Below, in pieces: positions 454 through 56,900 of a stretch of DNA of 64,000 bases. The translations under genes and the position numbers were made by a program. Position 1 is the stretch's first letter. Every line of letters starts with the position of its first letter. The notes beneath the pieces were generated by a model, which saw only the letters and a program-made list of their open reading frames with translations, did not search any database and was not told the origin of the DNA. Source of the DNA: Sipunculus nudus (lineage: Eukaryota; Annelida; Sipuncula; Golfingiida; Sipunculidae); assembly GCA_026874595.1 (NCBI GenBank), contig CM049321.1, positions 1,610,479 through 1,674,478 on the forward strand, written 5' to 3'.

Positions 454-2892
454 CTAAACAATATATCAAGTTTATATAGCATGAGCGAAATCATAAAAGA
501 GATAATAAATACATATTTCACTTATCAACATCTAATCTAATATTATTCATTCTTTTAACTAACATCTTATGAATACTTTAGATTTACTGTCTTAGTTTAC
601 TATATTTTGCCATCTATGAATACCTTTAAACCAGATAATGGCTTGTTAACAACACACATGCACATTTCTGTATACATGTTATTTTTAAAGCATAATGAAT
701 TTATCTTATCCATCTGATCTCTCAAATACAACAGTTCCTTGGATGTTTACTACACCTGCTTTAGATGTTGTGACTGTATAAGCATCTTTGTGCTTGTCTG
801 TTACAAAGGCTGCAGCTAGACTGATAAGAGAATATACAGCTTTTACAGACGAGAGGTACATAACTGATATTGGTCCACTCAGCAACATATGACCTTTCAT
901 GGTCCAAGGACTATTGAAGTATTTATACAACACCACACATATGCATTTGAGTTTTTCATGTACATCTACTGAGTGATCAAGCATAATACAGAAGGTGGAG
1001 AGACAGGGGGGAAATGATTGGTTGTCAATTTATCACATGCACTTGATCAGTTCTCCACTGCACATGCACATGAATCTTGTCAGAATTCAACATGTAACAA
1101 TCAGTCTTTCCACTTGCGCAATATTATTAGAATATGTCTTTTTCATTAATTCAATGACACAATCATAAAAGCCAAAACACAAGTGAATTTGATGTCATGA
1201 TAGCCAAGGGAACATATTACTTTGGCAACATTACCTGTCTGGTTACAGTAGTAGCCTCCAGTACAGTTAAGACACTGTGAGGTTGTTGACAGTGTTGTTG
1301 TTGGGCTGTAGGTTCCCTCGGGGCACGGTTCTGGCTCAGCAGTGCCCTCTGGACAGTAGCTGCCTGCTGGACACACATCAGCTGTTGATCCTAAAATAAA
1401 AACATTTCGAATAATTAAAAGCAAACATCAATTACTATCAAAATGATAAAATATTAACTACCATAACGCTAGAAAAAAATTCCCTTCTATAAAGCAGATA
1501 AAAACATGAACTACCATAAAGTTGATAAAACAAGGGACCCATGGGTCACGGCGCTCAGCTGATCATGATTGGACTATAAAATATATCACCATTGTGATAC
1601 TATACTGAGTAGATAAAGCTTAGAATATCATGGTCATGTTGGGCTTTTATAAAGGAATATAATGTAATATGTGAGTAAATGATATATGAAATAACCTGAC
1701 TGATGGATTAATATGGAGTAAAATATAGTGGTTTATTTTTTATTTATTTGGGAGGGGTCGAAAAAAGCAATTTATTTGAGCAAATATGAATGCAATGACA
1801 GTATGCTAAGCAGTGGTATAATGATGATAAGGCTATTTGTTGAAGGATCTATAGTGTATGGAAAACTGCAAGAGTTCAATTTGACAGATACAAGGTTATG
1901 ATTAACTATGCTGATGAGGGGATTTATGAATTTGTGACTGTAGGACATAATATCTTGACAAGATCGGTCTTGACAAGGTGCATTATTTTGATGCCCCTCA
2001 CGTCTACATATTACACAATATTGACATAATTTCTGGCATGTACATAGGTACCTATCGACAAATGGTCAACAGTACTAAACCACCTGGAAGGTTAAAATCT
2101 TAAAAATATGATGAAATGTAGATAATGTTTTGGAGGAAGAGGTAATCTGGGCCATGGTTGGTTTATATGATTGAAGAAAATGTTGCAAATAATATTTGAG
2201 ACCTGACCATGCCTTTCCATTGGTTACCTTTTTGATAAGCTGTTGACAGTTCAACAGTTTACACATTTGTCTGATGAGATCCAATTTATTTGGTAAACCT
2301 TTTTTTTATCAATTTTATGATATGTATACAGTTGCCATAACGTCCCCATTCCACAGGTGCAATGACTTGATGGGGGGGGGGGGGTGTTATGATCAGAGTT
2401 ACAATGCCTCTGTCTCTCTGTAGATATTTTCTTTAATTATTAAATTTTATGCTATAGCCATAGAACTATTGTTCACAGTGCCAAGGAGCAAAGCCTCAGT
2501 GGGATGAAGAAGGGGATGGTGAGAGTTACAACACCCTTGCATATACATACAAGATATGAAATTGAATTCAACAGTGCTTATAAAAAAAAAGTTTATTAAT
2601 GAACATTAAATATTTAAAACAGACAGAAAGATGGAGAAACAAAGCAAATAATTTTTTTCCCCATTCCACTGAGCCAAGAAAAAATTAACAATATTTGCAT
2701 TTATTCCTTTTTTTATTACATAATTTTAATCCAAGTTTCCGAATGTTACTATAAATTTACAGTATAACATACATGTTATTGTGAATATTTTAGTTGATTC
2801 GCATTTCTAAATTGCATCAACATTTATAGCTAATGTATCTAGTTTATAGTACCTGTCAATAGAATGGGATGGAGGGAAGAAGGGAGGCAATT

Positions 2893-2937
<45 letters not shown>

Positions 2938-5900: not shown

Positions 5901-8900
5901 CGGGAGCACATGGACGTGGTGGGTAGGCGAGACCTTCCATGTCACAAGCCATACCCCCAACACAAGGTGTACACTGAGCAATGTCTGTCAGACCTGTCAA
6001 TCAAATGACATTTATCCATTTAATATTAAATTTCTTATAGATTTGATTGCTTATTATGTGACTATATAAAATCATTATCAACCTGGATAATACTATAACT
6101 GAGCATACAATGTTTATAAATGCATACCACAAATCTACAAAGCATGTTGCCTGATAATTTCAGTAGATCGTTGTTTATCCAAACAGCTCAGGGGGCAAGA
6201 TTTATCATTCAGATAAACAATTTTTCAGGGTTCACCATGATCGCAAACCTACTGCCAGGTACCAGATTTTATCAGTTACTGACACAAACAAGATTATGAA
6301 GCTAATCCATAACAAACTTTAGCAACAACGTTTTTGTTAAGTCTTTCATCACTTTAATTGATATATTATGTTAACTGCATTAAGATTGTTGCTAAGGGGC
6401 CCTTAAAAATCAGAGTCAGTTATCATATCTTAACATTATGCCTGGCTTGCTGGGGATAAGATGTTCTCTTATATCCCCTTTTGGAATTGTTTTATTGTTT
6501 CTGATAAACGATCATTTTTCAATTTTGGAGAAAAATCTTTTAATATAAATTGTGTTTGGTAATATGAGGTTCCATTGTAACCACAACTGACTGCATTACC
6601 ATCATACTTTGAAAAAAACATCAAACCTTTACCTAACTTTCAGATGAATATATCACCTGTATTTTAGCAGGCTCAAGGTTTTTGATAATATTTCACCTGT
6701 GTTGTTATAGACCTGTTCCTAGGTGCAAGTGTTTTTATAATGACTAAAGTGACAAGAAATCATGTATGATAAGCACTGTCAGCAAACCTATATAGTCAGT
6801 ATGGATGGTCTTGTATGTAAGTACCTGTTCTGTTGTTGAATGTTCCCTTTGGACAGGGGTATTGCTCTGCATATTCTGTTCCGTTAAGGCAGTAGTACCC
6901 TTCTGGACACTGGTAGGCTCCATACCAAGTCACTGGACCATACGTAGCGTTACAGTAGAAGCCAGCTGGGCACATGTTGCAGTACCACCTGCCAAGGGTG
7001 TCCTGGAAAGCAACAAATAAAATTTTACATACACATGTATACACATTTCTCAGACAGCTTGACCTTAACCAACACTAAGTACAGTATAACCCAATTAATT
7101 TACCACTGGTTTATTTGCTAAACCCACATACTACATAATACAACACTGTTTACTGTCCATTTCCCTTGACTATTAACCAGACATGGTGCCAGCCACTTAA
7201 CATGTGTTTAACTGGCCCCTTAGTCATGTTGCTCACATTACCTGCCATTTTCCTGGCAGCAATAATGACAGTTAAGAGTTCAGTATTACATGACCAATGG
7301 TTCATTTACTCAAGCCAGGATTAATTGCCCTAGGCTAACCTTTTACAATATCAACACCAGTGCTTATTCATCACCTTCAACAACTGGTAATACATAAGTG
7401 TGCCATTTGTATGAATAGCTCAGGGAACAAGGTTTTTGTTCAGATAAACTATCATTTGGATAGACAGTCATTAAGATTAACAATTCTGCATGAGACTACA
7501 CAAAAATTTACTGCTGCCAAGAGCAAGACATTATAAGAGACTGATATATACAAATTAATAAACTAGCCTAAACCAAATGTTTGCAAACTATATTTGTTGT
7601 TACATTTCCATCAATATAATTAAGGTATCATGTTAAATACATTAAAATCTGGGAAATCAGCACTATTTATCCCTGCTAATAGCTGAACCTGTGTTTGAAC
7701 AATCTTTCATCACATTTTTCAGATTGTTTTTACCTCAGTCTTCGGATAAACAATCAAATTTTTGGTTCTCAGTTTTTAATTATTGATAAATGATTTTTCA
7801 GATTAACAGTGTTCAGATAATTGAGCCTCTTCTACAATTCCTGCTGGCTACATAACAAGGTTATAATATACTTAAATTTGTACTCGACTCACCTGGTAAG
7901 TTCCTGATGGACAGGGGGCAGGGTCACCAACACCCTCCAGACAGTAGTGGGCCTGGGGACAGGTGTAGTTACCCGGGGTAGGCGTAACTTGACCGACAGG
8001 ACAGTAGAAGCCCTGTGTACAGTTACCAGATGGGTAGGCAAGACCTACAGTGCCACAGTATTTACCTGGGGAAAAAATAATGGAGAATTGAAAATCAACA
8101 AGTTTGTGTAAAAATGTTTATATCTCATTCTGAAAACATAATCATGCAAAACATGTTAATGTTATGTCTATGTTCCAAAGTCTAGCATATATGATTATGA
8201 AATTTTAACAGGAATTAAAACAGACTGGGAGAAACAGTATTTTTTATGGCACATATATTCACAAAAAAATCTTACTTCAAAGTACTATTAAGATATTTCA
8301 TCATAATTACAAATGAATTTTTTTAAGAGATTCAAGAATGTTGAGTGGTAATTGCAGACACCAAATATTCAATTTGACACACACACACACACACACATAC
8401 ACACACACACGACTAAAAAGTGCCTAACTTTGAAATGTAGTTTCAGTGTGTGTAACAGTTATAACTAATATCACACTTACCCTTGTCACAGATCTTACAG
8501 CTTGTAACAGCAGAGTTTCCTGTGGAGTCAAGATAATAACCACTGTCACAGGGTGTTGGTGTCACACTGCCATTAGGACAGTAGTTACCCATGGGACAGA
8601 TATCACCAGTGACGCCATCTGTTGGGCTGTGCACAGAAGCTCCAAGTGTACAGAAGTAACCTGTCAATGTCCAAATAGTTGAAAGATTATGACTGGATAG
8701 AAGATTAATGTCTATAAGGTATGTACTCATAATATGAAAACTACAGGCACCATTCTATTTCTTCATACCTGATGGGGTCTTTCAATATCACAGGAACTAC
8801 AACTAAAAGTGATACCTCAGTAGCTTATCAGTGCCATCTGGGGTTCATGTCTGACACTATTCATTCATTTAAATGTTTCATGATACATCACACAGGTGCT

Positions 8901-11900
8901 TGAATCACACAGCTTTGCGTAAGAGAACTGATCTTCAGATATATCCAGTGAAACCTTGTTGTATCAAACTCGCTTAAGTCGAATACCTCGCTTATGTCGA
9001 AGTTACTGAGTAAATATTCCAGACAACTCTAGTTAAATTATAACCAAATAAATCTGCTTGTGTCAAACCTCAGATGTTGTAAGGTTTTCTGAGAGTCCCT
9101 TCAACTTTGACACGAGGTTTCACTGTATTTTATATATCAATTTACATATAAAAGATATTTCAAGTATAGTTCTTTTCCTTTTATTTAAAATGTTACACTG
9201 ATTGCTTTATAGCTGGTTCCAATAAGCAAAAGAGGTTTTACTGTATATAACAAATCATTCAGTTGTGAAAGATCTTTTATCAAGGATTCTAATCCTACTT
9301 CAAAACCATTTTGTGACTTAAAAAAACTTTTCTTTAAGCAACATAACCATATAGCACTAAAGACTTTGCAAAGACTCTGGTATACCTCATGGACATTCTA
9401 ATGGAATTTCTAAGCATTGTAATGCTATTCGTTGTTCAATCAGTCCTTTCATACTGACCCTGATTGCATTCGGCTGTTGGAGCAGCAAGTCTTTCCGTGG
9501 CACAGTACATGCCTGGGGTGCAGTTCGTTGGGGCCACGCTGCCTCCCGGACAGAACGTTCCTGGATAACACTTGCCACCCTCTGGTGGGTTCGTTGGCAT
9601 GGGCTGGGTGGCGCCACTGGTGCAGTACCATCCTTCACTGTAACAGAACAGTCATCATAACATTTAATGTAAAATGACATCAGAACTTTCAGCATTTATT
9701 ATGCATATATTTTAACCTGCCTTATATATCATGTGAGGAACATGATCTTGAATCTAAGATTTTTGAGATAGTTGATGATGTTACTTTTAGAAAATTTTTA
9801 AGCTTTTAAACAGCAGGGAATAATCCTAAATCAAGTCTATATTACAGTATTACAGTGATATTTTTAGAGTTATTATAAGAGTATCCTTGATGTTTTTTTA
9901 ACCTCTGACTTTTGTTTCTAAAATAATTAAACTGAATACCTTGAAATCTATAATATTTAAATTAATGTGCAAGGTTCTAGATTCTGAGATACATTTAACA
10001 ATATCTCAATTGATATTATACAAAGAACAGAAGTATTTCAAGTATTTGAATGAGTATGCAAAATTAAAAAAAAAAGTGGAAATGAAATAGACATCTTCCA
10101 CCTCACTAGGGACATCTGTTGGCGAAGATTGACACTAACAGTTCGGGTGAGCTATATAATTTAAAAAAAAAGATTAATTGCTATATCTCAAATTTTGAAA
10201 GCAAAAGAATCCTGTCTTATCATTAATAATATGGTTGCTGTCCTCGTCTGTAGCATTATAATATTGGCTTAAAGGACCTGCACTGTTATGTGCAGTGCGC
10301 ATGCTCGTGGAAAAGGTCTATTCATCCATGTTTCTTTATTAAACATCCAATGACAGAGATTGATAGTACAACAATATGTCACATACCTGCAGTTACTGGT
10401 GGGCTGGTCAAGGCCGTTCCCCATACAGTACATGCCCCCAGTACAGGGCTTGCAGGCTGTATCATTGGTCTGGTATGACAGAGGGTTGAAGGTGCCACTG
10501 GGACATGGGAATTCGTCCGACCGCGTGGTTCCTGCCGGGCAGTAATGACCGGTCGGACATGGCTTGTCTGTGAAGTCCGTGGAATTACCTAGACAGTAGT
10601 AGCCTGCAATTATAATAAGAACAAAAATATATCTGTGTCAAATTAAGAATAAAAATTCAATTATTTCCACTCAGCTGAAGCTGCACTGCTATCAAGTATG
10701 GTTTTCCATAAATTCACATTCTCTTGTAATAAACTATATTAATATTTCACCGATAACTCCTTGCAAATACTTGAGATAAACAGTTCCCTCTAAAGCCACA
10801 CCACATGACCTGTGTCCTTGGCCCCAGTTACTAATTATCCTGCATTTTAAGCCTTATCTCTATTTAAAGCCTCACACTAATTGTCTGCGATTTCCTCAAT
10901 GGAGGGAGACCTGGAACACACTATTCTTTATTCCCTTTGAGTATTCATGTTTGAGCTGTTTCCCAGGACACACATTCTGTATGATTATTCTGTTTGAACA
11001 AGTTCATACCTTCTGGGCATGTCTTGCAGGTCCACTCTCCCTCTAGGTCCTGGTAGGTACCAGCAACACATCCCTCAGGATATGTGGATCCCAGCGGACA
11101 CTTGTAACCACGAGGACAGATGTCTCCGTAACCTGTAACAGATATTTAAATCATGACCTGTAACCACCATAAGGGATACCACCTAAGATGAGACTGAGTG
11201 TTAAATATACGGAATATATATGGAATTTCTGTAAGCATGAAAACAATACTGATGAATTCCAAACGGATGAAGTTCAGCTAGATGATTTCCAAATTTGATA
11301 TCTGCATCTGTTGAACTTGCACATGACCTAGTATTAAATTGTAGGAATAAATACACTGCAAAGGTCTTGAGAGTATGGAAATGAAGTTATCCATGGGCAA
11401 CTGACAAACAAGAAGATAAAGTTATTTCCAAGAAATTTGGAAATCATGACAGTCAAATGACAAAACTTTCATGTGTTGTTTTTGGCAGGCCATGACCATA
11501 TCATTGCACATTACACTCATTACACATAAGTTTAACTGCTTCATGCTATGTAGAGTATGCCTGTTTTACACTTGTTCAAACCCATGACAGTGACATTCCT
11601 GGACATACGCCAACTTCCTGGTCATGATACTCAGCAAACCCAGTTAACAAAAGCAGTGGTTAAGTGAACTGAATTACAGAACAATGTAGCCTGACTACTG
11701 CATAAAAGTAAAGTACAACAGAAGTGAGCCCAGAAGATATTGGTAAAAGGATTTTAAGGGGCCTATTTCAATATCTGGTGTTAAACAACTAAATATAACA
11801 CCTTGAACCTTTTATGAAAATAGGCCAGGAAATGCTGACCCCACTGACAGGCTGTTCATTTTATTTACATCCACATGTTTAATAATTCTCTTCATTTTGT

Positions 11901-14900
11901 TTATACCCACATTTTCATAACATGTAGGGGCCCGCCAAAATAATCCAAACAGGGACATCTGGCGACTAGTCCGACAAACCAGAGTTTTGCAAAAGGCGTT
12001 TTGCAAGTATTGACCTGTCAACTTCTGCACATATGCAACAACCATTTAAAATATGTTTCTTTTCATTTGTCAACATTTCTGTGTCTATTAATAACTTCTA
12101 GATAAATAAATTCAGACGTCCTTACAGTGGCATTACAAGAACTTTCTGACCAGGAATCACCCAGAGTTCATTAACATGTACACAGAGTAAGCCAAAAATC
12201 ACAATAAAAATCTATAGGAAGATAGATGAATAGCTGGATTAACGTACCTGTGTGACCACCAATGAGTGGGCAGGTTGGGGGCCAGGTGGTGTTGGTGTTA
12301 GCGTGGTGCGGGTTGCCTCTGTCCACCCCTGATTCACAATAATAACCAGCAGCGCAGACACCCGTGACGTTAGTTGCAGCTTCAAGGTCACAGTAGAAGC
12401 CTCCATCACAGTCACGGCATTGTGTTACCTGTAAATAATGTCAATATAAAGGACTCAATATCTGTAAAGGAGATCTGCAGATTTCTTTTTTATAGGGTTA
12501 TATAAAAGAAGATATTAAATATTACTTTTTAAAAACATGATAGTTTACACAATTTAAATCTCAAATCTCTGTGCAGGTTCGTCAAATCTGCAAGTCATTT
12601 ACGTTTCAGGTTTGAAGCATTCAAAATTTGTAAATTTTTCATTTGAAGTGCACAATTTTCAGGTAAGATTTGTTTGCATAATATGATAAAAGAATATGAA
12701 CTAAAATATTCCTTTTCCTATTTGAATATTTCTTTTTGTTGTAAGGGCTTGAACCATATCAATTAAAAACCCATCCTGAGTTAAAATATTTAATAAGATT
12801 TTTTATTCCTACTTCAATACTACAATACAAAATCATAACAGTCTCTGCTGATAATTCAGTCTCTAGGCATGAAATAGAAAGTTTTAATATTATACTTAAA
12901 CTGTAGTCTGACCTTGAAGAGGTTCTTCTGGTTGCTGTAGGTGCCTTTGGGACATGGCTGCCAGTTCAGGTGTGTTCCGTTGGCGCAGTAGTAACCCTCT
13001 GGGCAGTCATGGTAACCAGACACTGGGTTGCCAGCAGTAACGTTTTCTGGCAGACAGTAGTAACTGCAAAGGCAAAAGACATATGCCTATAATATAAACA
13101 CAAATAACTTACATTCAAAGTTAATTAAGACTTTGGGAGTATTCATCATTTGGAAATAGTGACAAAAAGAAAACATTTACAGAGAGTTTCATGAAAATCC
13201 ATAACATTCTTGGGACATCATCACAGTGCTACCAAAGTCTGATGACCTCTGACCTCTGCATGGATTCTACCAAGCATCAAACTTAGATGAGATATTATAC
13301 TGGATGATATTTCTGTTGAGTTTAATCCAAGTCCACCCTATCCCTGGTAATTAACTTATCGCAGCGACCTCAGAGGGAAGCCTGGTGATCTCTGACCTCG
13401 TGGATTTTGATGAGGGAAGTACTTAGGTGAGATAATCTAATAGTACAGGCGAGTTTTGTGAAAATCCATCAAATCCCTGGCAAGTTACTGCAGCACCACT
13501 TCAAGTTAACAAAAGGTGAGACATACAGACGCTGCCAATAATATAACTCATCTCAGGTGGGCTTAGAAAATAAAAAATCATCAAAGAACATCATAATCAC
13601 CAAGAAGCACAAGAAAATGGTCAACATGTCGACTTACCCGTCAGGACAGATGTCACAGTCCCACATGCCCGTCCTGTTGGTGAAGTAGCCAGGAGCACAG
13701 GACTTTGGTACATCTGACCCCTGTGGGCAGTGCAGGCCGATTGGACATATCACTGGGTTGGGAACATTGGAACCTGAAAGACAACATTCCATGGTCAAAT
13801 TAAACGGGGAAAATGACATTCCATTACAAAATTTTCAATAACTAAGATTTGTTAAAAGTTAAAGGGTGACCCATTTGTACTTAAATAAGTAAGTACAAAA
13901 GATATCTGTAAAATAAAAGATAAGGTAAGGTAATAAAATAAAGGTAAGTAACATTCACATACTTTCCTACTTGTCTGCTTATCTTCATTCTATTTCCATT
14001 ATCTCAGAAATTAAGAATTTTTAATTATTTACTGGACCTGCTTTGCTCACCTTAGCTATACAAGTGTACATGTTATGATACACACTTTGAGGTCAATCAT
14101 TTTTTCAACAAATATAACATAAGGGTACAATACAACTGACCATTTTCTATTGCTGTATGCTGATAACTAACAAGTGACCCATGGGTCATGACGCTCAGCT
14201 GCCAAGCATGACCTGTGACATCATGGACTGAGATTCACAACTTCCAGTCAAATTTTGAAGAATCAATTTGCCAATTTGTTGAAAATTTTCTATGACAACA
14301 GAAATATATATCACCTATGTCTGGTTAAAACACAGTGAATTGATGGTCTGAGGAAAATGCATGATTGTTAAGCTATCAGGAACTATTCCAACAGCTTGCT
14401 TGAAACCTGTCAGTCTCAAAGGAACACCACAAAGGGAAAATATAAGATCAAAATATATAGCAAAAATCAAGGAAATACATGCAAGAATTATTGAGAACCA
14501 GGTGCTTCTGTATGAATTTTTATTCAATACAAGCCAACTGTACTGCACTTTTATAAATGATGGTAATATTTTTTCAGAAATATTTGACCCAATCCTTTAC
14601 AAGATTACATAAATATACATCCAACTGCATTCACTTTAACTGTTCTTGAGATAATATGATCAAAAGGAATTAAAAGATGGTTGCCTGGTGGCCATATTGG
14701 ACTTCTGACAAGTCTGAAATCAGACAACAAACATTCTCTAAATCGGACCAAACATTAAAGAAAAATTACTGAAACTGCACTGAAGAAAGAATTTCCAAGG
14801 TGGCTAACTGGCAGACATTATGGATTTCTGACAAGTATGACATTTGATTTCCCACATTCTCCAATAAGAGACCAAACTTGGGCAAATTATCCAGTAATGA

Positions 14901-17900
14901 ATGCCCAAAATAATTCAAAAGGCATGTCCAGGCCCTCATATCAGATTTATAGATATGCAATTGTAAAAAGTGTAAGTCCAATATTTTTTATTATCACTCT
15001 GCTTTTCAATGGGGTCAGCAGGGTAGGTAAACTGCCAAACCTGAAAGAAAAGAAATGCAGAAAGCATGACTAAGAGTCTTGAAATAAAACAAAAAGCCAT
15101 CCTAAATCAAGGTACACATCCACATATTATGAGAACAAACACTTGCTTTTATATGTGGTGATATATATTAAAATATTCAGATATCTAGGAAACTAAGTTT
15201 ATTGCTAGGATTCCATAAAATAAACTGCAAAATGTTCCCATCATCTTATAAATCAGTAGCTAAACCTTAATACTATACTCTCATAGTCTTAATGCCTGGC
15301 TGAAGCATTCTGACAACAGTGTTTTTGTTATGAAGTAACGAGGTACTTATCACTGAGCCTTATCACTTAATAGGCTGATACAAAAGGGAGTCATATGTCA
15401 CCAGTGTCACTCACAATTACAGCCACACAGGGAGATATACCAGCTGGAGTGGGATGGTTATATATACAAGAAAAATAGAGATGGTCTATAAAATTAGTAA
15501 TTGTGAACATCCCTGACCTATGACCTTGGCCTTTTGCCCATATATCAACTGGATTCTTTCTAAATGATGGGTAACTACTAACCACTTAAATCTGGTGTAA
15601 TTACTTGGCAACCAATGGGTGAATAATTTTGACCTGCAACCTTTAACCTGCTGACCAGCTGACCCCAAAATCAATAAGTTATTTATTCAAGCAAAAAGAC
15701 CCATAAATATGAAGTTTGAGTCAAACTGAGTGATGCATAGATGTGGCATATGTGAAAGACTGAAGGTTTGGGTTGAACAGTTACACTTGAAATATGCTCA
15801 CAAGCATTTAGAACAATTAAATATTGTGACCTTGACCTTTGACCTTTTGAACTCAACATCAATAGGCTTCTTCCCTTATTGGTAGGTAAGCCATATATGA
15901 CAGATGGAAGGTACAGATTGAAAAGTTTGCCTGAAAATGACTCCACGCAAGAAGTGGGTGCTGTGAACTTGACCTTTGACCTCAAAATCAACAGGTCTTT
16001 TCCCCTGTTGGCAGAGAAGCGATATCAGTGCTGGAAGGTTTGCAATGAAAAGTCTAGCTTGAAATGTGTCCACAACCTTTTCAAAGAAGTGGATCCTGTG
16101 ACCCTGACCTTTGACCTTGTGACCTCAAAATCTATAGGATTCTTCTCCAACTTAGTAGGTGAGCTATATGTGAAAAATCAAAGAATTGGGATGAAAGGGT
16201 TGGCTTAAAATGCATCCACAGGCTTTTCAAAGAAGAGGCTCCTGTGACCTTGACCTTTGACCTTTTGACCTAAAAAAAATTATGGTTCTTCCCCTGTTGG
16301 TAGGTGAGCTGTATGTGAAAGATGGAAGGTTTGGGATGAAAATTTTGTCTCAAAGAGTTATTTCTGGGGGGTGCAAACACACCCCATAACTTCGAGAATA
16401 TAGGTCGCAGTGACCTAATATCAGGTTTGCAAGGAGATCTTTTTATAACCTCTAAGACTGCATAGGATTCATGGCCCTAGCCCCTACGGTTACGATTTGT
16501 GCCCTGCTAACGGACGGACGGCCGGCCAGACGGCCGGCCAGCCAGCCGGCCGGACGGACAGACGGAAGGACGACGGACAAAGACCCATCGCTATAGCCCA
16601 GCATGACTTAAAGTCAGCTGAGCTAAAAATTAAACTTATACATATGGCAATTATCATTATATTTTCAACTAGTACATAATATTTTCAACCATCTCTGTGA
16701 AAGGGCAGGTTTTTTTACTTCATATTTTGTTGCGATTTGATTAAATACCTGAAATATATGGAGATGCGTGTACTATGCAGAGAGCAAGTCAAAAACCCTG
16801 CTGGTACAGGCTTTTAGAAGGTGTCAGTTTAAATGCTATTAAGTGAACATTGCTGATAAGTGGAGCTGTGTATACCTTGTGGACAGTAGTATCCCTGCTG
16901 GCACAGTCCTTCAGGATCTGTCAGTCCGTTCTGCTGACAGTACCATCCTGCTGGGCATGGGGTGCACTCTGACACATCCGCAAGACGAGTAGCGTTGGAC
17001 CAGGTGCCGTTAGGGCAGCGGAATGGAGTGTGTGTTGCTGAAAACATATTCCAGTTCTCAATACATAATACTGGTTTGGAACAATCATATCAGATACTGA
17101 CCTATTCATGGTTTCACAGATAACTGGAGATTCTGATAGGGATTTTACATATATAATTACCCACTTGTCCTAGGTTAACAAAACTACAACTAGGATGAGC
17201 TTACCTTTTGTTTATACTCATCCTGTAGGAGAACAACACATATTAGAACATGCCCTTGTTCAGTTGACTTATCTATAAATTTGTACCCTGTCTAATACAG
17301 TCACAATCAGTCAATTCATCAATATCAGAGACAGGTGCAATTACATTTATTAATTACAGATTTCTCTCATTTATATACCAAGCAAACAAAAATATCTGAA
17401 TAAAAAAATCAGTAATTAATGTTACTGCAGATGGACTGTTGGCTAGTTCTGTTAAGCTCACCTAGAGGGCAGTAGCGTCCAGCTGGGCACACGATGGATG
17501 TGTTTGTGGTGGAGCCCTCCAGACAATAGAAGCCTTCTGCACATGGGCCAGTTGGTTCAATGATGCCAAGTTCAGCACAGTAGTAGCCTGGAATATCATA
17601 TTATATAAATAGTGCAATAATATTCTCATAACACAAGGTTCCTAGTATTTCATGAGAACATATTTTGCTGAATATTACCTGTTTTTTATGTAATTTCAGA
17701 ATTCCAGTATGACAGATGTTGAAAGTTATGGCATTGTAAAGCAGTTGCAATGAACAAGGGTTAAAGTAAGAAATCAGTATGCATTGTATGTATCACACAG
17801 TAAATACAATATTTTAACTTTTTTAAGTTTTTTTTATTAATTCCAGGATATTCACAAATCCTGTCAATAACATCTATTTCACTCTAGAAACAGCACCTTG

Positions 17901-44900: not shown

Positions 44901-47900
44901 ATCAGAAAAAAATCACACACAGACACAAAATATAATGTAAGTACTGCTGTACTTTCTTAAAATAAATTCATCACAACAAAAGTGTTCATTTGCAAAATTC
45001 AACTTTCACACATTGATTAAATTTGGCTTTGGTTATATTTAAACAGGAAAAAGCAGTTAAGCATTTAATCCAAACATCCACCGATATCCTGTTATGTCTA
45101 TTGATTCTGGAAGATGATTCAGATTTTGCCTGGGCTAAAATGTATTTAAACTGGATGATTTTTAAACCAGATGATTTTCAAAAAGAATTCATTAACTTAT
45201 TTTTTAAAACTGACCTCAACAAAAGCAGTCTTGAACATATCTATAGTATTTCCTGCTGTAACCAGATTTATTAGAAACACAATTTAAAAATGTCACAAAT
45301 GCAATGAAGAGATACTTTTGAAGTATACAAGTTAAATCATCAGAGTTTTAGTACAATTTTGACAGCTCTAAACAGGTGGGGTGCACTGTGTTTTTTTCTG
45401 TGCTGGAAAAAAGCCTTGAAAATCTATTAGTTTTTACAAACTTTCAGAGGTATAATATTTGGTACTTAATTTTTTAACAAAGGGCATTTGCAACCTGTTA
45501 TCACCATACATCAATAACACACCTCAATCAACAAACACTAACTTACTAGTAAGCACTCCTGTAATGATAATGTCTCATATCAATGACATCAATAAAAAAA
45601 TAGATATCACACTGAAAGTTCATTATCATCAAGTAACTTACTATAATCAAGTCGTTATACCTTAACCATCTTTGAACCTGTCTACATGTGAAACACATCC
45701 AGTTGGCAAAGATTATTTAAGTGGCTTGTATGACCTAACAGGTATTTCAGTTACAGCAACAAAAAGTGAAACATTACAACCCCAACATACTAGAAAATTG
45801 TCTGGCAATAGTGATTGTCTACAGAATTCCCACTCAAAAAACTTTAATAGTACAAATTTAAGCATTTTTTAAGGGCTTTTAAGGACCATATCTGTCTGAT
45901 TTCAGCAACCAATATCTGAATTTATCATAGAATTTCTGAAGAATGGCAATGAAATAAAAAGGTGCTCATGCATATCATTGATGCTCCATCCTAATGGTGA
46001 ATTCAGAAAGTTAAAGGGGCCCAATCACCTATAAAGCTAGTTGAGTTAACACAAAAAATAGCTTCTTCCCTTTAAAATAAATCTGTACCTGCCTAAATAT
46101 TGCCTTGAAACCGTTTGCTTACTCTTGTAAAAAAATGTAAAAATACTGTGGACTGGGCGCGATCACATGTGTCAACATAAACAGAGTGTTGGGCCGTGTG
46201 CAGCGCGGAGCCACAACACTTGTCATTCAGGAGATGTCCTGACTGACTTGGCCAAAAATATAATGCATGTTAACTCTGGCTGAAACACCACGTGTTGCCC
46301 CTCATAATCAGAACTCCCGTCACGTGGCCTTGTTTTGTTAAACAGACACACGTGGACTATGTTTACCAACACTCAGAAAAAATAACAGTGTTAAACAGCA
46401 GTATGTGAGAAAATGAGACTTTGGAAACTTCTATATAAAACAAAACTAAACTGACAGTGTGAAAGAATAGGCATTATATTGCTCCTGATTATGTCCCTTT
46501 TACCATGAACACTTGAGACAGTCACTTGACAAAGAATTCAGGGACTGAAAAAGCAGATAATTTTAGAGTACCAACATGGACCAAGAAAGCAAAGTGCAGC
46601 TTTGCAGTTCTACTTTTCACTGTTTAAATAATTTAATTCAGCATTCTCCATCGATAAAACTGAAAGAAAGTTAAAACTTTAAAGGATCTCTGGTAATTCT
46701 TAAAGAAATTTAAGGATGATTATGTACTTCAATTCTGCAGTATAGAATTCTTGCATTTTCATGGATTTTAGGGACCACAATGAACTTGGGTCTATAAACA
46801 TGCTGCTATAATGAAATTAGTAACACACATACCTGTTATGTTGCCATCAGTCGGGTTTGGCACTGTAGCGTAGGCCAGGCAGTAGTAGCCTGGGTCACAT
46901 GGACCAGTCGTGGAGTTAAGGTAATCATGAGCACAGTAATAGCCGACAGGGCACGGGATCTTGTACGACGACCCCTCCGGGCAATAGTATCCCTTGGTGC
47001 ACTTGTCACCTCCGACCCCTGATGGCATGATGCTCGTAGAACCACCGGAGCAGAAGTAGCCGGGGGCGCACTTACCAGCGGGCTCTGACATAGCTGACAT
47101 GTGACAGTACTCGCCACCTGTTTGAGATGTTCAATAACGTTAAAAAAAAAAGCACTGCAAGGGTGAATAATATGCAAGTGGTAAGTCTAATGACCTCTGA
47201 CCTCATTAACTATGTCTTGATTCTGCTAAGAATTTATCCCAGATGATCTAATCACACTTACTGTAAATAGCACTCCATCTACTTGAATTGAGTAAAGCAT
47301 CAATATATTTTAATTATACAGAGTGATCATCAAACAAATTGCATTAGATTGTAGGTGCTCTTTAATCAAAGTGCAAATGCTTTGAAATGTTAATTTAAAT
47401 ATATTCTTCAGTAGGATTAAAACTGCAAAGCACACTGATTGACAGCCATGAATGTTTCAAAGATTTACATTATTTTGTTTACAAATATGTATTACATGAA
47501 ATATAAAAATTATCAGCAACCAATAGCGAGTTCTTAATATGCAAATTTTTATGCAAATGATGTTGACATCTTACCTGGACACTGGACGCAGTCACTGGGG
47601 CTTGACCTCAAGGTCATGTTATTGAAGGTACCAGCACTGCATGGGTACTGGTTCCAGTTCTTTGTTGCAGCTGGACAGTAGTAGCCCATTGGACAAGGGA
47701 AATCTGTGTAATTAGCCGTAGCCTTAGGACAGTAGTAACCTGAAGAAAATACAAAATGTGTTCAACACAGACACTTGGGGACATCTGGTGATGTTGTCGA
47801 GCTAATTTCTACATGGCAGGAGCTGATGACTTAATTAAGATTATTAAGGATGTGAAGAATACAATGTCAAATAATGTGATACTCATTGCAATATTTTGAT

Positions 47901-50900
47901 CAGGATATGATACATGATACAACATATATATGATACATTATATTTTAGATTACAAGCTGAATTTTCCATTGTTTACAGAAATGTTAAAATACTATTTCAT
48001 AAAGTTAATTTCCAAACCATAAATAAAATCGATTTCTAAAAAAATTACAAATCGGCTAAATGCATTTCAATCTGTTTTTACGCAATTTTACCTCCGATAT
48101 TTAGATTGCACTGAGAGAGATTTTCTTTTCAAATTTTAGGCATCACTTATCTTTAGTTTTTTATATTGTGATAATATTGATACAGGGACAGCTGACTATA
48201 CTTATACAATATTTGAGTTGTACTGCAATGTATCGGTGCACAGGTGAATGGTTACAGCCAGGACGACCATTTTTGTTTGTCCATCCATCCTGTTATTTAT
48301 CTACACACATCATATAACATAATTTGTTGGCAATCAGTAACAAAGTACAGAGGCTGGATAATCTGTATGCTTGTCGCTATCTTGAGCAAATTACAAAAAT
48401 TTCCATAAAATTTTGTTGACAATCAAATAATATTGTAATATTTATAATATTTTTCTATAGAAACCTCAATTTGATAATGCCAAAATCTGAAGGTCTATTT
48501 AAAATTGAATATTTTTTTTGTAAATTTTTACATCATTATTATGTCATCAAATGCTTGTTTCATTGCAGAGTTAACACAGTTGTGCGTTTTTTTTATGAAC
48601 TTTGAAATTATCAGTGACTTCTGAATTAGCCAACTTTGATCTTTTCAGTCCAACAGGCAGAAATTTGCATGTATGATTGGATGCTTGGACCAAGTGTCCA
48701 AAGGAGACTTTGAGTGTCACAGACACTTATCCCTTAATTCCTGTAAAAAATAATCATAAATATAAGTGTGCAGGTGTATAGTCTCCCTTACCCGCTGGAC
48801 AGGTGTCACACACTGACTGTCCTTCTGACGCTGCATATGTTCCGTTATCACACTCTATAGGGTAAATGCTGAGCACACCACCAGGGCAGTAGTGTCCAAC
48901 TGGGCACAGACCACCGAGACCTAACTGACGATCATCATAGCACGTGTTGTTCAGTGGCTGTGACTGATTCGGGCCTGCTGGATACTGCCGGTCTATACCA
49001 TAAGCACACCAATGTCCAGCAGCACAATCCCCTGAAAAAAGCAGCAATATATCCATAACCAAGCTCTGTAGCTCTATGATTCAGTGCTGGGTTTCCCACA
49101 GCAAATACAAGTTGATGATATAATAGGGCACACATAATGACTGTACTGGATGCTTGCTGATGAAAACATAAATCTAGATGAGTCATGTATATTAAAAAGC
49201 AGAATGAAATAAAGAGAGAGAGAGAGAAAAAAATAATTTATTCAACATAAAAGTAAAGAATCTATACAAAATATGTTCAATATGTCAATATTTTTGTTTT
49301 TATTATGTCTGGAGACTGGTGTTAAGGATATTTATCAGCTTACACAACTGCTACCTGTGACACATGGAAAAAGAAATTGTACATAAATATGGAGGTTAAG
49401 TGTTATACATTTCTAAATATTTGATACTATATGATTTAATGAGGAAATTGGTGAGAATTGGGAAGATTTTCAACTTGAGTTCCTGAAAAAACAGTTTGTG
49501 AATGATTTAAAAGAAATTTATTTTTGGCTTAGTCTAATTTTTGTTACAGATGTAACAGTTTATCTGGAGGCATTTGTCTGTATATGAATTTATAAAATGT
49601 TGTTTGGAGTAGCAAATCAATCCTTGAAGACTATGAGTGAAGAATTTGTCAACAATGATTTGGTCGGTTTCATTTATGACTTTTGGTGTTATGTTACTCA
49701 GACAGTTGTCAGCTATGTTACTTCTGGTTCTGTTTTTAACAAGAGATATCTTTGAAAAGTTGAGAGGTTCCTATGATAAAAGTTTCCACTGTATTTGCAT
49801 AATCGTCTGAAAAATCACACCTTTTGTATACCTTCACCGCATTTTGCTGGCAGAAACTACTGGCTTGGACATTAATCTATGCTACAGATTATTCATGTAT
49901 ATTATTGTGCAAGATAAAATAAAGAGATATATATCATTGAAAACTTGAGAGGTTCTTATTACAAAAGCTTCCACTGTATTTGCATAATCATCTAAAAAAT
50001 CACACCTTTTGTATACTTTCACCGCATTTTGCTGGCAGAAACTACTGGCTTGGACATTAATCTATGCTACAGATTATTTATGTATATTAATGTGCAAGAT
50101 AAAATAAAGAGATATATATCACTGAAAAGTTGAGAGGTTCCCGTGATAAAAGTTTCCATTGTATTTGCATAAGCATCTGAAAAATCACATCTTTTGTACA
50201 CTTTCTCCACAAGTTGCTGGCGGAAACTACTGGCTTCGGCTTAGTACTGAATAATTATAGACAGAAATACTCCTTAAACAAAAACACTCTAGTTCATTCT
50301 CTTTAGTAACTATGTATGTCCTGTTGTTTGATTCCTTTGTTACTGTATAACTGTACTGTAACTGCTATTAATCTCTATATGTACGATGTATGATATATGT
50401 TTGTTACCTGTGATGTTTTCTTTTCAACAAAAAAAAAAAAAACACTCTAGTTTTCAACTGATATTATGAATCTCAGCTAAGCACTGTAAACAAGGGGCCC
50501 ATGGGTCACAAAGCTCAGCTGAATTTTGTAAAATTTCAGTAAATGCAAAATATACTTATTTCAATTGTTATTGTTTTTATATATTGTTTTTTAATGATCA
50601 TAAGACTAAACCATACCAATTACCAACTGGTGACATCCTTTTCAAATAACATCTTAATGCACTCAAGTAAATATACAGCAGGACATAAAATCACTGCGAC
50701 CCTACCTGTAGGCGCTGTGAGATGTTCGGCACCGCAGTACTTCCCGGGATCACATGGTATACACTGTGCCTCCTCGTACAGTCCTTCCTGGTTGCTGAAC
50801 GTTCCTCGTGGACACGATTTCCAGTCGATACTGGTTCCCTCGGGACAGTAGTAGCCAGCGGGACAGATGATGCTCTGACCCTTCTCAAAGCAGTAGTACC

Positions 50901-53900
50901 CTGCTGGGCAGTTGTAGCACTTCACGGCATGAGTGTGGTTCACCTGAATCAAAGGTTTTTAACATTAAAGATTTTGCACATATTTTCTGTGATCAAAAAT
51001 GGGCCTATTCCAATATCTGATGTCCGTCAACTAAAGGTAAATACTGACTTTTCATATATTTCATTTTCATCCTTTGGATAAGCTTTAAACAATATAGAGC
51101 ATTAGGCCATAGAAAAGATTGGTTCCAAAGGCTTTATGGTCATCAATTTTATTTTAAATTTTTGTAGAAATTTACCAATTTTGAGCTGAAGACTTTTCTT
51201 TAAAAAAAATTGAATTCATTTTATTATGATGTGCTTCACCTGTTTATAACAAGTTGTCCCCTGACCATATGAAATTTTTATTGTAAATTTATGATTTAAA
51301 GGTAAACTAAATTCACTCTATTGCAATGATTTCAGAATAAAAGTGCTCAAGAACCAAAATTTTTGTTGGCCTGAAGATGTATTTTTAGTCAAGTCAATTA
51401 CATATTTGTTCTCAATCTGACTTTATAATTATCATTCTGAGAGTTTAGATAAGCTCCCCAAATACAAGGTAAAATAGACAAAACGGGGGAGACAGCAGAA
51501 ATGAAACAGAGCAGAATTTTAATTACTTACATGGCTATTGTTCCTACATGGCAGTGGTTGTGATGACCCAATTGGACAGTAGTGACCGATCGGACAATAT
51601 GTGTTATTTGGCTCCCTGTAGACGGAGCCAACTGGACAGTAGTAGCCTTCTCCGCACAGTCCTGTTGGTTCTGTTAGTCCATCTGTCTCACAGTATGACC
51701 CGCTGGGACACAGCAAGCACTCACTCTCTGCAGTGTAACCTGTCTGGTTGCCATAGGTACCTGTATTGTAGAATATTGTAAAGTTTAATATGTAGATTTA
51801 TTGTAAAGTCAAGGTGATCTGCAAAACTGTAAGATGTGACATTTAATAATTCCATGTAACATACAAAAAATGTTTAGGTTAATGAAAGGTGTGCTTGCAA
51901 TAAGGGGTGGTAAATTGGGAATAATACTCTTATTAATTATCCACCAAGTCAGATATCTGATTATAGATAAAACACTGATATTTTATATACCATGACATTC
52001 AGAAAATATCTTACATAAATGATACAAACATGTGGCATCAAATTAAATTGAAATTAAGTCAGTTTCATTGACTATTCATTTCCCCTTTTCAGCATTACAT
52101 CTGACAACAAATAAGTATAAGGTCACACAGAAAAAATATTTAAAAATATATATATCTCATCCAGTCATTTCATTCTGATTCCACAATTTCATTTAAAATC
52201 AATATTTTTACCCAAAGAAACATAATTCCCCCTGCACATAATAAAGTTTACACTAAGAATCATGTTTTATGTGTTACAGAATTATTTAATCCTGAAATAA
52301 TTTCCATTTAATTAAGTTAGTTTTATCATTTTTTTTATCAGAATTAAGACCAATTATATAAAAAGACAATGCTTTTCATGACCACCCATAATCTTGTGGT
52401 TTTGTAATCATGGACAAGAAGGTCAAACAAGACATTGCTCTGACCTTGAGGACAGGGTTGCGGTGCATAGCTGCCGTTAACACAGTAAGATCCTGCAGGA
52501 CAAACAATGAAGTCTCCGTTGGTCGCTCTGTGTGGGCAGTAGTAACCGGCCCAACATGGTCCACTGGGTGCTGTCAAATTTGTCTCACCGCAATAATAAC
52601 CTGATAATTATAAATATATCCTTTTGTAATCAAACTGAGAATATGTCCCATTGGATTGACAGAAATACAAATATGTGTCTAATAACACCAGGCACATATC
52701 ATATTTTTAAAGTTTTGTATGTATAGTTGTATTGTCATTTAAAAAAAATATCACCAATAACATTAGCAGTAAAAGTGGCAGCTGTTATTCTTCATAATGA
52801 ATTTACTTCTTATTAGTATTATTATTTTTATTTCTATTGTTATTTTGTATTAGAAACAGATTGAGTGGCAATGTCTCATTACAAACACTTGAACATTTCT
52901 GTGTAATTTCTTACTTTCATATTTTAGTGAGCCAGTCACAAACAACACTTTTACTCTCAATGTCATATTTTTAAGTGTCACAAATTAAGATCTTTAATGT
53001 GAATAATTCAGGTTCACATTTTTTTAAATATTACAATGATCCTCTTCAATTTACACATTTCACTGAAAGAACAATATTTAGACTGCTAACCAATTTCATT
53101 AGTCATTTTGTTTCAACTGCCAAGTGCACTATACACTAAATATTTATATTTTACACAACATGCCTCCTAGCACAAGTTCAATCTTTCCTAGAAACCCTTG
53201 CAGACATGTATTAACTTTGAAAACAGCCAAGTCCACATATACACTAAAGTTCCAATTTAATCTCTCTTACCTGCTGTACAGTTGAGGCACTGCTCCTCAG
53301 CTATTAGTTTAGTGGTTGGAGAGTACGTGCCGATCGGACATTTCTGTGGCTCACTGGTCTGAGTAGGACAGTAGTGACCGGCTGGACACTCGTCAGCCTG
53401 CCAGCCCTGGTTAGGTGTTGCAGACTGTGCATATTCTCGACAGTAATACCTGTAGTAAAGAAGTACAAATATCTTAATAATGATGACCATTCTTGTTCTA
53501 CTAAGACAATGTAATATTCCTGAGTTATGTTTCATTGAACTTTTGGATAATTTACTTTTTTTCACAAAACATGAAGTGCCTTTTTTTATCATGTTACATG
53601 CAAACACCTATTGTTATCCCCACAGAATTCTCCGCACATGATACAATATAATGTTCTTATTTTAATATATTTCAAATTAAAAGTCATATTTTAATTTATT
53701 ATATGAATTAAACTAACTATGCTTCAAATGAAAAGTCAAACATTATACTTTCTTGTCAGATATATGGGTACAAATACATCTGTGTGGAGCTTATGCAAAT
53801 TATGTGGTCATGTGACTTACCCAGCTGGACATATCTTGCTGTAGGTGATCTGAGCTACTTGGTCGCAGTAGTAGCCACCTGGGCACGCCTGGCAGTCTGA

Positions 53901-56900
53901 TACATTCTGTACGCCAGTGATATTGGACCATGTTCCCACCGGGCATGGATACTCAGTTGCATATTTAGTACCGGCGGGGCAATAGTATCCTGTAAAGATA
54001 CACATTATAGAAATATATGTATTAATACATACTTTGACACATTGTCTCTATATTTTACAGGAAATTACTTGGATTTTTCTGGCTTACTGATACACTGCAT
54101 ATTGACTTTGTACTGTAATGTAGTCAAGCCCTAGTAATATCATCCGAGTTGGAGTCCAAGTCAACCTTTAAGTTAAAAGTCACCTGGAACCCAGTCCAAG
54201 TCTTAGTCTGAGTCCAATACAAATCTCATCATGAAAAGATAATTAAAATGGAAATTTATTCAAATTTAACACAGTATGATGATTATTGTAAAAAGACATC
54301 CATTTATGATGACAATATTATTTTTTTTTGTATTTAAGTGGTCAGTCTGAACAATGAAGCACTGAAAACCCAAAAACAATGAAGCACTGAGTCCTGTTAC
54401 TACAATCTATATGTTGCACCATTAATTCTAAACTATGCTTTCCATACCTTCTGGGCAGTGTGTTGAGTTGTACAGGACTACTGGTGCCATCGTGTTGTCA
54501 CAGTAGAAACCAGCGGGGCAAGTCTTACAAGATCCCTGTGTCGTCTCGTCTTGGTAAGTACCAGATGTGCAGCGAATCGGCTGGTGGCTGCCAGCAGGAC
54601 ATGAATGACCAATAGGACATATGAGGCCGCTCGGTGTGGCTTCGAACATGCCATCTGGACAGTAGTAACCTGGGTCACATGGTCCTGTGGGAACGACGTT
54701 GCCATAACCAGCGCAGTAGCCTCCCTGAGTACAGTTCAGGCAGTCTGTGATAGCCTGGCTTCCTGTCGTATTCATGAAGGTCCCCGGTGGACAAGCTGTG
54801 CCATTCATACTTCCAGCCGGGCAGTACTGTCCAAGAGGACAGTAATTACCTGTTCATTATAAGAATATGAATACTGTGATTATTACAATTTAATACTAGC
54901 ATTGTTCATGTGGTACCTGATAGATGTTACTTCAAAAGCCTCTTGCATGGTTTAAAAATGTTAATTTTCTCAAGATCATTTGGGAAATATGAGAATTAAC
55001 CCCCCCATAGGACACACTAGGCATCGTTTCTGACAGTTCAAGGCTAAAATGGCTATTTCAAAGGCATGACCACACAGGAGTTGTGTGACAATGTTCAGAT
55101 GTCACACCGTCAATTATAATACAGACTGAGGGGACAAATGGTGTAATGTTATATTGTTGTTTACAGTATTAATTGTAACCACTGACCTTTGACGCCATCC
55201 ACTGGCGTAGCTGTGGCGGAGCCCAGATTACAGTAGTAGCCAGCACTGCAGTCTCCAGTTGGAGCAGTCAGTTCCGGATCCTTGCAGTACTTTCCAGGAC
55301 TGCAGTCCACCATGGCAGCACTACCGTTTGGACAGTAGTAACCAGGCTGACAGCGGCCACCTTCAGCGGAATTGAGAGGTTTGGACACCGTGGCCCCTGT
55401 TGTGCAGTACCATCCTCCATCACATGGTCCAGTTGGGTAGGACAGTCCGGGTGTCTCACAGTAGGATCTAATTTTTTTTATTAAAATGAGAAATTTGTTT
55501 AAACGAAAATTCTGAGAGAAAAATTATCTTCATTTAACAAGTACAGAGATAGAGAGTTGGTTATAATAAGTTCCTGTGCAGTGGTTGCTCTTTTGAAATG
55601 GTCCTTTTAATTATATTAATTTAGTTATGATATTAATCAACAAGTGAGGGTAATTTACCTTCAGTAATGCTCAGATATAATATGTTTGGTATGAGGTTAC
55701 AAGACAGTTCAAACAGATTAAGCCATATAACTTCAACTATCTAAACATCATAGATGTTCCTAAGGACTAACAAGGATTCAGCCATTATAACATGATGTCA
55801 ACATAGCTACAATATGCCTCCTTTTTCCTAATATGACAGTACAATATGCAAATGTCAGCATTTATTTAAACTTTAGATTTTATTGAGGATCTCGTACATG
55901 ATTCAGATTCAGAAACATCACTGAGTAATATCCACAAATGTAAGTTTATGCATGAATAAACCTTGGAATATGAGCCGAATAACTGAATGCAAACATGGTA
56001 TAGGGACCTCCCCCCCCCCCCCTACCCCGACATAGCAGATGCTTGCATTCCTTAGAATGCCGATTTCTAGTTTTATTGGATACTATCCTGGATCAATTAT
56101 CCCCGATATTAGATTGTAAGCCCAGAATCAGACTGTAAGGTCAGAATTAGATTGTAAGCCCAGAATTAGATTGTAAGCTACAATTTCTTGCACCATACTC
56201 ACCCAGGAACACATGCGAGACAATATGTTTGAGCGTCAGCCAAGGTGAGGTTATTAAAGGTGCCCACCGGACATGGATACTGGTATGGTTCAATGGTTTG
56301 GGCCAGGCAGTAGTGACCAGCTGGACAGTCCATTGGCCATGAGGTGTTCATGGTACAGTAGTAGCCTGCGGGGCAGTTCTTGCAGCTTGTCTGGCCGGTC
56401 TCGTTCTGGAAGGTTCCTGGTTGACAGGCCTGTGGCTGATCACTTCCGGCAGGGCAGAAATGACCTGTAGTAATACATAAAGTAATAGATAAAAGATAGG
56501 CTGACAATAATTGACCTAACCACCACAGCTCCTATGCTCCGCCCCTTTGACCTAAGTATGTTAATACACACTAAAAATGCTCCCACACAAAAAGCTTTCC
56601 ATGCCTATGGTTGCAAGAGCTGTTTGTAAGACAACTGTGACATCACAAAGACGTCATAAAGGTGGGTCGCATGTGATGTTGCATTGACTGACATCAGCTT
56701 GAATTACTATAACTCTGTTTTCCGGTGATGAATATATCGCAGTCATTGTGCAGTGTTTTGCCATATTTTGGATTATTTGTCTCATACAAAATCAGTGTAA
56801 GGTAAGATATTATTATTCACTTGACAGTCCATGGAACAGCTCCTGCAACATTTTGTATAAACATTTTTTTAACCATCTCTTTTGTATAAAAATATCTAAG

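What the first reader, a model, noticed from the sequence alone, without database searches (positions are those of the whole stretch)
7905..54562. Five full tandem copies of a ~687-residue supermodule in one protein
The exons between successive GTYQD anchors add up to 688, 687, 685, 679 and 693 residues. The order of distinctive sub-blocks is the same in each copy: anchor and CDNTMAPVV, GTKYATEYPC, ATPNQxxxADxCPxGHYCP, SPTTxxxxCLNC, GxHCPxGS, short loop, WQxCPxGTY, [VI]DRxxP...GGICPxGHYC, second short loop, GWYCxxG..GGxC, VDGVTG.ICP. Nested repetition (about 70-residue units inside a ~690-residue unit) over at least 4,000 residues is unusual for the GCC2/GCC3 family, where a handful of units is normal. 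It implies growth by segmental duplication of blocks of roughly ten exons.
Basis: seen in the sequence. Interest (0 to 1): 0.85.

Follow-up and report, generated by a model that had tools for sequence, protein, structure and literature searches.

The report
Giant membrane protein, six equal modules
An animal gene encodes a giant cell-surface protein whose outer part repeats a block of about 687 amino acids six times, a second gene in the same genome keeps nearly the same plan, and the nearest solved structure is the filament protein of an alga's ciliary hairs, so both may be rods built to a set length.

Summary
The spliced minus-strand gene (K16) has modules of 688, 687, 685, 679 and 693 residues, as read, plus a sixth (680) cut by the window edge. 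Copies are 45-50% identical, 72 of 73 cysteine columns are invariant, and units group by position, not copy. The gene is far larger than seen: 139 modelled exons over 158 kb, at least 9,820 residues, one transmembrane helix, a ~2,280-residue tail. A paralogue (K8) has six ~700-residue intervals between the same flanks, two of a variant type; copies cluster by gene. Module number thus seems kept while copies turn over. K16's 62 module introns use 52 positions, 43 private to one copy, so most introns came later. The nearest solved relative, by sequence and predicted fold of one exon, is the cysteine-rich domain (678 residues, 26 nm) of the Chlamydomonas mastigoneme protein MST1. Best reading: a membrane-anchored, disulphide-ribbed, glycosylated extracellular rod of set length. 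Function is inferred, not shown.

The parts
54563..58769 (-). End of 'module 0' (the ~690 residues before the first anchor, variant type B) and the exons just upstream of module 1; the gene continues to at least window 111447, outside the window
43637..54562 (-). Module 1 (688 residues)
35118..43636 (-). Module 2 (687 residues)
27339..35117 (-). Module 3 (685 residues)
19397..27338 (-). Module 4 (679 residues)
7905..19396 (-). Module 5 (693 residues; exon 18542-18652 uses the corrected donor)
1..7904 (-). First part of module 6 (680 residues in all); it ends outside the window at about -6771. Beyond it lie divergent repeats, a juxtamembrane region, one transmembrane helix (~ -24.4 kb) and a charged, coiled-coil-like tail that ends in a stop codon near -46.27 kb
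24594..24998 (-). 135-residue exon of module 4 used for the AlphaFold2 model and the MST1 matches

Best explanation
It is a single-pass giant cell-surface protein (called K16 here). Its ~7,500-residue ectodomain is a continuous disulphide-ribbed rod of GCC2/GCC3 (Ephrin_rec_like) type units. Six equal ~687-residue modules of nine CxxCxxG intervals make up the middle, preceded by a variant seventh module and flanked by more divergent units. A juxtamembrane region, one transmembrane helix and a long cytoplasmic tail anchor it. Most likely the rod is a spacer or tether that holds something a set distance from the membrane, or forms a cell-surface filament, and modules stay in register because the 687-residue block is the structural repeat. 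History: modules multiplied in an intron-poor gene; after that gene had duplicated into K16 and K8, each array was homogenised or re-amplified separately while module number stayed the same; most introns were inserted independently, mainly in phase 1 at Gly codons. Shown here: the modules, the single helix, the paralogue with the same flanks, the largely unshared introns, the sequon enrichment. Inferred: rod shape, disulphides, length-setting role, site of expression, the order of events.
For: Six modules of 679-693 residues, each over 1,030 bits to a profile that was built from these same six copies; 72 of 73 cysteine columns invariant, 43 of 699 columns gapped. Phase-free exon prediction gives compatible phases at 106 of 116 ectodomain junctions and 131 of 145 overall; chance agreement from the phase shares would be about one half. 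One hydrophobic transmembrane segment in each protein; in K8 two overlapping windows of one segment. Paralogue K8 on C8: six anchor intervals of 698, 699, 704, 698, 716, 708 residues; flanks match position by position (823, 1336 and 369 are the best scores for m1, 7 and 8). Copies cluster by gene, 97/95. AlphaFold2 of one exon (mean pLDDT 80.9) matches mastigoneme MST1: Foldseek E 2.6e-7, VIA Z 10.6, 3.6 A, 124 residues, 29% identity; phmmer E 0.0014. NxS/T sequons in modules: 117 against about 28 expected from composition.
Against: No transcript, protein or localisation data. Only one 135-residue exon was modelled well; the second model was poor (pLDDT 58.2). Foldseek's TM-score for the best MST1 chain is only 0.40 of the query (0.58-0.60 for 8tx1 and 8wa2_D), and the phmmer stretch (chain 1681-1773) is in another register than the VIA one (1620-1767). 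Whole-module and N-terminal searches of the PDB found no MST1. Of the six K8 intervals, three match the K16 module profile in one piece, one in two pieces and two only in parts, so 'six' in K8 rests on anchors I chose; equal number could be coincidence, as copies pair by index in 0 of 6 cases. The N-terminus and signal peptide were not established.
Confidence: 0.55

Rival explanations
1. Animal counterpart of a mastigoneme: the modules pack against each other, between chains or with partner proteins, to form a hair-like filament on cilia or microvilli, anchored by the single helix and the long tail.
For: The closest solved relative of one exon, by sequence and by predicted fold, is MST1, the mastigoneme filament protein; its Cys-rich domain has 678 residues and spans 26 nm (PMC11015965, passages), close to one module. 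MST3 of the same filament is an 8,572-residue repeat protein proposed to set filament length, with a 1,600-residue intracellular end (passages).
Against: MST1 shares a widespread repeat fold; ELAPOR1, EphB2, thyroglobulin and the calcium-sensing receptor also match. No poly-proline helix (longest Pro run 3) and no PKD family in the Pfam scan of the membrane end. MST1 has 26 disulphides in this domain against 72-74 Cys per K16 module. The equal length may be chance: the two domains were not aligned end to end.
Confidence: 0.2
2. The arrays grew by chance unequal crossing-over. Number and register of modules are not selected; only the disulphide frame of each unit is.
For: Copies cluster by gene, K8 mixes two module types, and adjacent copies are not specially alike.
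Against: Both genes keep seven module-length blocks (0 to 6) inside the same flanks, and module length in K16 varies by only 2%.
Confidence: 0.2
3. A receptor of immune or adhesion type with a TNFR/Eph-like ectodomain, in which modules are ligand-binding platforms rather than spacers.
For: The fold lists include 4-1BB, DR4 and Eph receptors; the tail is long, 38% charged or Gln.
Against: The invariant columns are mainly Cys (72), Gly (43) and Pro (25), which looks structural; no Pfam signalling domain reached its cut-off in the tail pieces scanned, but about 1,200 residues of the tail were not scanned.
Confidence: 0.1
4. Several neighbouring genes, or a decayed gene, rather than one protein.
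For: Large introns near window 58-87 kb; no transcripts; the absence of stops inside exons is partly built into the model.
Against: No stop in 139 joined exons, split codons included; 106 of 116 ectodomain junctions phase-compatible without being forced; K8 paralogue with matching flanks.
Confidence: 0.07

Closest known systems
Chlamydomonas mastigoneme protein MST1 (PDB 8wa2, 9b4h, 8tx1)
   Same: Cysteine-rich rod of the same repeat superfamily (the PDB also names it an ephrin type A/B receptor-like domain-containing protein); best sequence and fold match of one exon; its Cys-rich domain has 678 residues.
   Different: MST1 (1,987 residues in the PDB) has nine Ig-like domains, one Cys-rich domain and a poly-proline helix; K16 has six such-sized modules in one chain plus a transmembrane helix and tail.
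Chlamydomonas MST3 (passages of PMC11015965)
   Same: Giant membrane-linked repeat protein (8,572 residues) with a long intracellular end, proposed to set filament length.
   Different: Repeats are poly-proline, not Cys-rich; the membrane end is PKD-like.
GCC2/GCC3 (Ephrin_rec_like, PF07699) proteins such as Babesia BboGDP1-4 (passages of PMC9843837)
   Same: Large surface proteins carrying the same Pfam domain.
   Different: 2,678-3,719 residues with 8-10 transmembrane segments and few annotated domains; no ~690-residue nested period is mentioned in the passages read.
ELAPOR1 (PDB 9vql, 9vqm)
   Same: Its Cys-rich part matches the model (Z 8.0).
   Different: The solved chains are 767-814 residues long, about the size of one module.

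Membership tests
Ephrin_rec_like (GCC2/GCC3, PF07699) | Match over the curated cut-off of 23.1 bits | tested here: met
   N-terminal 400 residues 106.8 bits; exon 54428-54853 26.1 bits. Against this: module 5 as a whole 20.2 bits, below cut-off; three other window pieces 12.2, 22.8 and 15.0 bits, below it.
Mastigoneme MST1 | Growth-factor-receptor-type Cys-rich domain fold | tested here: met
   Foldseek E 2.6e-7 but query TM 0.40, VIA Z 10.6, phmmer E 0.0014, for one 135-residue exon only.
Mastigoneme MST1 | Poly-proline helix after the Cys-rich domain | tested here: not met
   Longest proline run is 3 in K16 and in K8.
Mastigoneme MST1 | Forms an extracellular filament on cilia | not testable with these tools
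   No expression or imaging data.
Mastigoneme MST3 | PKD-like membrane domain | tested here: not met
   One transmembrane segment in the modelled protein; no PKD family in the Pfam scan of the membrane end.
TNF receptor superfamily (TNFR_c6) | Match over the Pfam cut-off of 29.4 bits | tested here: inconclusive
   N-terminal part 30.2 bits, just over; window pieces 18.7 and 12.7 bits, below.

The most novel reading that the evidence does not exclude
K16 and K8 are single-chain mastigoneme-like filaments of an animal: each ~26 nm module corresponds to one MST1-type Cys-rich domain, six to seven fused in one membrane-anchored polypeptide, whose fixed module number acts as a molecular ruler maintained by selection in two paralogues while the modules themselves turn over and gain introns independently.
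Probability: 0.15. Interest if true: 0.85.

Novelty: new variant of a known kind. Interest (0 to 1): 0.6.

Why it matters
It gives a clear case of two-level repetition in a giant animal surface protein, with a paralogue that makes a question testable: is the number of modules selected? If so, the protein is a genetically encoded length standard on the cell surface. The link to MST1 suggests that the material of algal ciliary hairs has an animal relative of the same kind. The mismatch between conserved modules and largely unshared introns points to extensive intron gain after duplication inside one gene.

Tried and rejected
Blocks of ten exons as duplication units: rejected, since 43 of 52 intron positions are private to one copy. 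Against a clean rejection: exact position-and-phase sharing in K16 (11 pairs of at most 150) exceeds a circular-shift null (mean 1.3, 0 of 500 as high). A null that draws phase-1 sites only from CxxG glycines predicts more sharing than seen (15.0 +- 2.2 against 9 extra), but it is generous, because only 28 of the 62 introns sit at such a glycine. Site preference may explain the coincidences; a few positions may be inherited. Within the modules 9 aligned positions are used by both genes.

Intron loss from a common ancestral module: unlikely. 52 positions in K16, and 80 in both genes, would mean ancestral exons of roughly 26-40 nt (positions).

Introner-like origin of the introns: no intron family spanning splice site to splice site was seen, apart from a 149-bp spacer of a tandem repeat in K8. 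73 of 236 introns share stretches with another intron at E 1e-8.

Paralogue of the tail by genome search with 752 residues from the transmembrane helix on: 11 matches, all in K16. A direct alignment gave 28% identity over a coiled-coil-like stretch that lies beyond those 752 residues; that may be composition rather than descent.

PDB searches with a whole module, the juxtamembrane region and the N-terminal 400 residues (one chance-like row) gave no relative. Tail pieces gave no accepted family. The second AlphaFold2 model was discarded as poor.

N-terminus: two upstream ATG frames with hydrophobic starts were listed and not followed.

Naming the animal: Wnt-family matches on five contigs mark an animal (that Wnt is animal-only is recalled). 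A molluscan haemocyanin Pfam family gave nothing, with no positive control. Phylum not established.

Literature: seven searches aimed at this kind of protein listed no paper describing it; two more were on mastigonemes and intron gain. They cover open-licence PubMed Central only, by these words. Two papers were seen in passages, the rest only as listings.

Weak points of my gene models: the K8 model holds 4 or 5 in-frame stops; their 23-residue spacing places them in a tandem repeat upstream of the modules. K8 module 3 is 704 residues. Two predicted K16 exons (window 3058-3087 and one below -47,000) were dropped by hand before the protein-based counts; searches use a model without those drops. 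K8 module intron counts use the, 33 model; the flank comparison uses the, 40 model. The codon and splice weights were trained on the gene itself, so the strand and phase controls are not independent.

Full report
Where it lies. The window is C16:1610479-1674478 of a 1.43-Gb genome in 153 contigs. It is an animal: Wnt-family matches lie on five contigs (that Wnt is animal-only is recalled). The gene is on the minus strand. I fetched 60 kb below and 60 kb above the window and predicted exons with a Viterbi model built from codon log-odds, splice-site weights and phase coupling. The weights were trained on the gene itself.

Extent of the gene. Modelled exons run from window 111447 to -46217: 139 exons over 157,665 bp, giving 9,820 residues without a stop, after two weak exons had been dropped by hand. 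The last exon reads on to a stop after 16 further codons, so the C-terminus is probably found; the N-terminus is not. The protein has one transmembrane segment, about 7,515 residues outside and 2,281 inside. Without phase coupling, 131 of 145 junctions, and 106 of 116 in the ectodomain, still have compatible phases. Given that 94 of 138 introns are phase 1, about half would agree by chance. The opposite strand gave 57 exons and a score of 211, against 4,515 for the gene strand. This supports one transcription unit without proving it.

The repetition. Anchor intervals are 688, 687, 685, 679, 693 and 680; 693 depends on one donor that I corrected. Copies are 45-50% identical in all 15 pairs, with no clear gradient between neighbours. 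Of 699 aligned columns, 178 are invariant, 72 of them Cys. Offset analysis, signature spacing and the 54-unit tree all support the module; in that tree unit position 3 does not group. Inside the module, residues 35-183 resemble 519-667 and 186-277 resemble 598-689, so it has older internal duplication. Just before module 1 lies a variant 'module 0' (type B), and divergent module-like pieces lie further out on both sides.

The paralogue. A locus on C8 (fetched 33,423,001-33,533,000, plus strand; the model is open at both ends) encodes a second giant, K8. Anchors that I chose at the starts of profile matches give intervals of 698, 699, 704, 698, 716 and 708 residues (the third is 738 in the model). 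Against the K16 module profile, K8 modules 3, 4 and 5 match in one piece (645.8, 660.7, 648.6 bits), module 6 in two pieces, and modules 1 and 2 only in parts, with a different middle. The same partial modules lie before and after; a similar juxtamembrane region (36% identity), one transmembrane helix and a coiled tail follow. Flanking pieces match their counterparts best: m1-m1 823, 7-7 1336, 8-8 369. K16 module 0 scores best with K8 module 1 (1535) and next with K8 module 0 (1447). I therefore call K8 modules 0-2 and K16 module 0 type B, and K8 3-6 and K16 1-6 type A. Counting module 0, both genes carry seven. In a 12-row tree, K16 and K8 copies are separated by one branch (97/95), but end branches are long and the program warns of long branches meeting. 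Index-to-index pairing is the best in 0 of 6 rows. I infer either homogenisation within each gene or separate re-amplification, with module number kept.

Introns. K16 modules hold 10, 10, 10, 10, 12 and 10 introns; K8 modules 4, 3, 4, 10, 10 and 12. K16's 62 introns use 52 aligned positions; 43 are private, 8 are in two copies and 1 in three. K8's 43 use 37, and 9 positions are used in both genes. In the parts compared outside the six modules (m1, 0, 7, and 8 with the juxtamembrane region), 33 K16 and 28 K8 introns share no position with the same phase. In K16 94 of 138 introns are phase 1, and the commonest junction is AG|G (71 of 138). Exact sharing between K16 copies is above a circular-shift null (11 pairs against 1.3) but below a null restricted to CxxG glycines, where only 28 of 62 introns lie. 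So the duplications probably took place when the gene had few introns, most introns were inserted later at preferred sites, and a few may be inherited. I found no intron family that would show the mechanism.

Structure and relatives. The Pfam family of the units is Ephrin_rec_like: clear in the N-terminal part, below cut-off for module 5 as a whole. An AlphaFold2 model of the 135-residue exon 24594-24998 had mean pLDDT 80.9 and pTM 0.63. Foldseek's seven best chains all come from Chlamydomonas mastigoneme entries, though the best one has a query TM-score of only 0.40. VIA-align gives Z 10.6 over 124 residues, then ELAPOR1 at 8.0 and thyroglobulin, Eph and calcium-sensing receptor pieces at 6-8. 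phmmer with the same exon also ranks MST1 first (E 0.0014), then DR4 (0.018), in another register than VIA-align. Whole-module and N-terminal searches found no MST1. From passages of PMC11015965: the MST1 Cys-rich domain is residues 1,176-1,853, 26 nm long with 26 disulphides; it mediates filament formation; MST3 (8,572 residues) is proposed to set filament length. If K16 has the same rise (26 nm per 678 residues), six modules would span about 158 nm; this is an extrapolation.

Mechanism, shown and inferred. Shown: the module frame, the single helix, the paralogue, the sequon excess (117 against about 28 expected; 6 of 69 sequon columns shared by at least 4 of 6 copies). Inferred: a stiff glycosylated rod, fixed in length by module number, tethered to the cell interior by its tail. 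The mastigoneme analogy is the boldest reading; it is not a membership claim, because the poly-proline helix and the PKD-like domain are absent as far as tested.

Verdict. A real, well-formed two-level repeat in a giant animal surface protein. It is a new variant of a known kind (GCC2/GCC3 Cys-rich rods). The unexpected parts are the paralogue with equal module number, the largely unshared introns, and the MST1 match.

Noticed in passing
G000:C60, C61, C62, C66, C72, C74, C75, C89, C123: Several small contigs of the assembly carry bacterial-type cytochrome oxidase genes: nine near-equal COX1 matches (two on C89), and a cbb3-type gene on C123. The one tested (C60) is at most 59% identical to the 80 relatives kept from a capped GTDB scan. 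They look like associated bacteria assembled with the host.
   Followed up: partly
L012:7854-9085 (C8, upstream of the K8 modules): A 218-bp tandem repeat, its 149-bp spacers 97-99% identical, carries an exon-like 69-bp stretch; joined in the gene model it brings in-frame stops, so it is probably intronic or an assembly issue.
   Followed up: partly
window 60461-62154: Tandem array of about 5 copies of a 326-bp unit in a large intron upstream of the modules.
   Followed up: no
window 49746-50236: Tandem array of 2.7 copies of a 185-bp unit inside an intron of module 1.
   Followed up: no
K16 cytoplasmic tail, about window -28.3 to -33.4 kb: Repeated [H/D]PxTG-type motifs in K16 (5 matches to the pattern used) that a similar pattern did not find in the K8 tail; no Pfam family.
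   Followed up: partly
K8 gene (C8): Intron-poor front half (exons of 1,773, 1,184 and 1,431 nt, modules 1-3 with 3-4 introns) and intron-rich back half (10-12 introns per module).
   Followed up: partly
G000:C2:13.88-14.01 Mb and 54.06-54.17 Mb, C5:36.7-37.0 Mb and others: Other clusters of Ephrin_rec_like exons, possibly further large genes of the same broad family.
   Followed up: no
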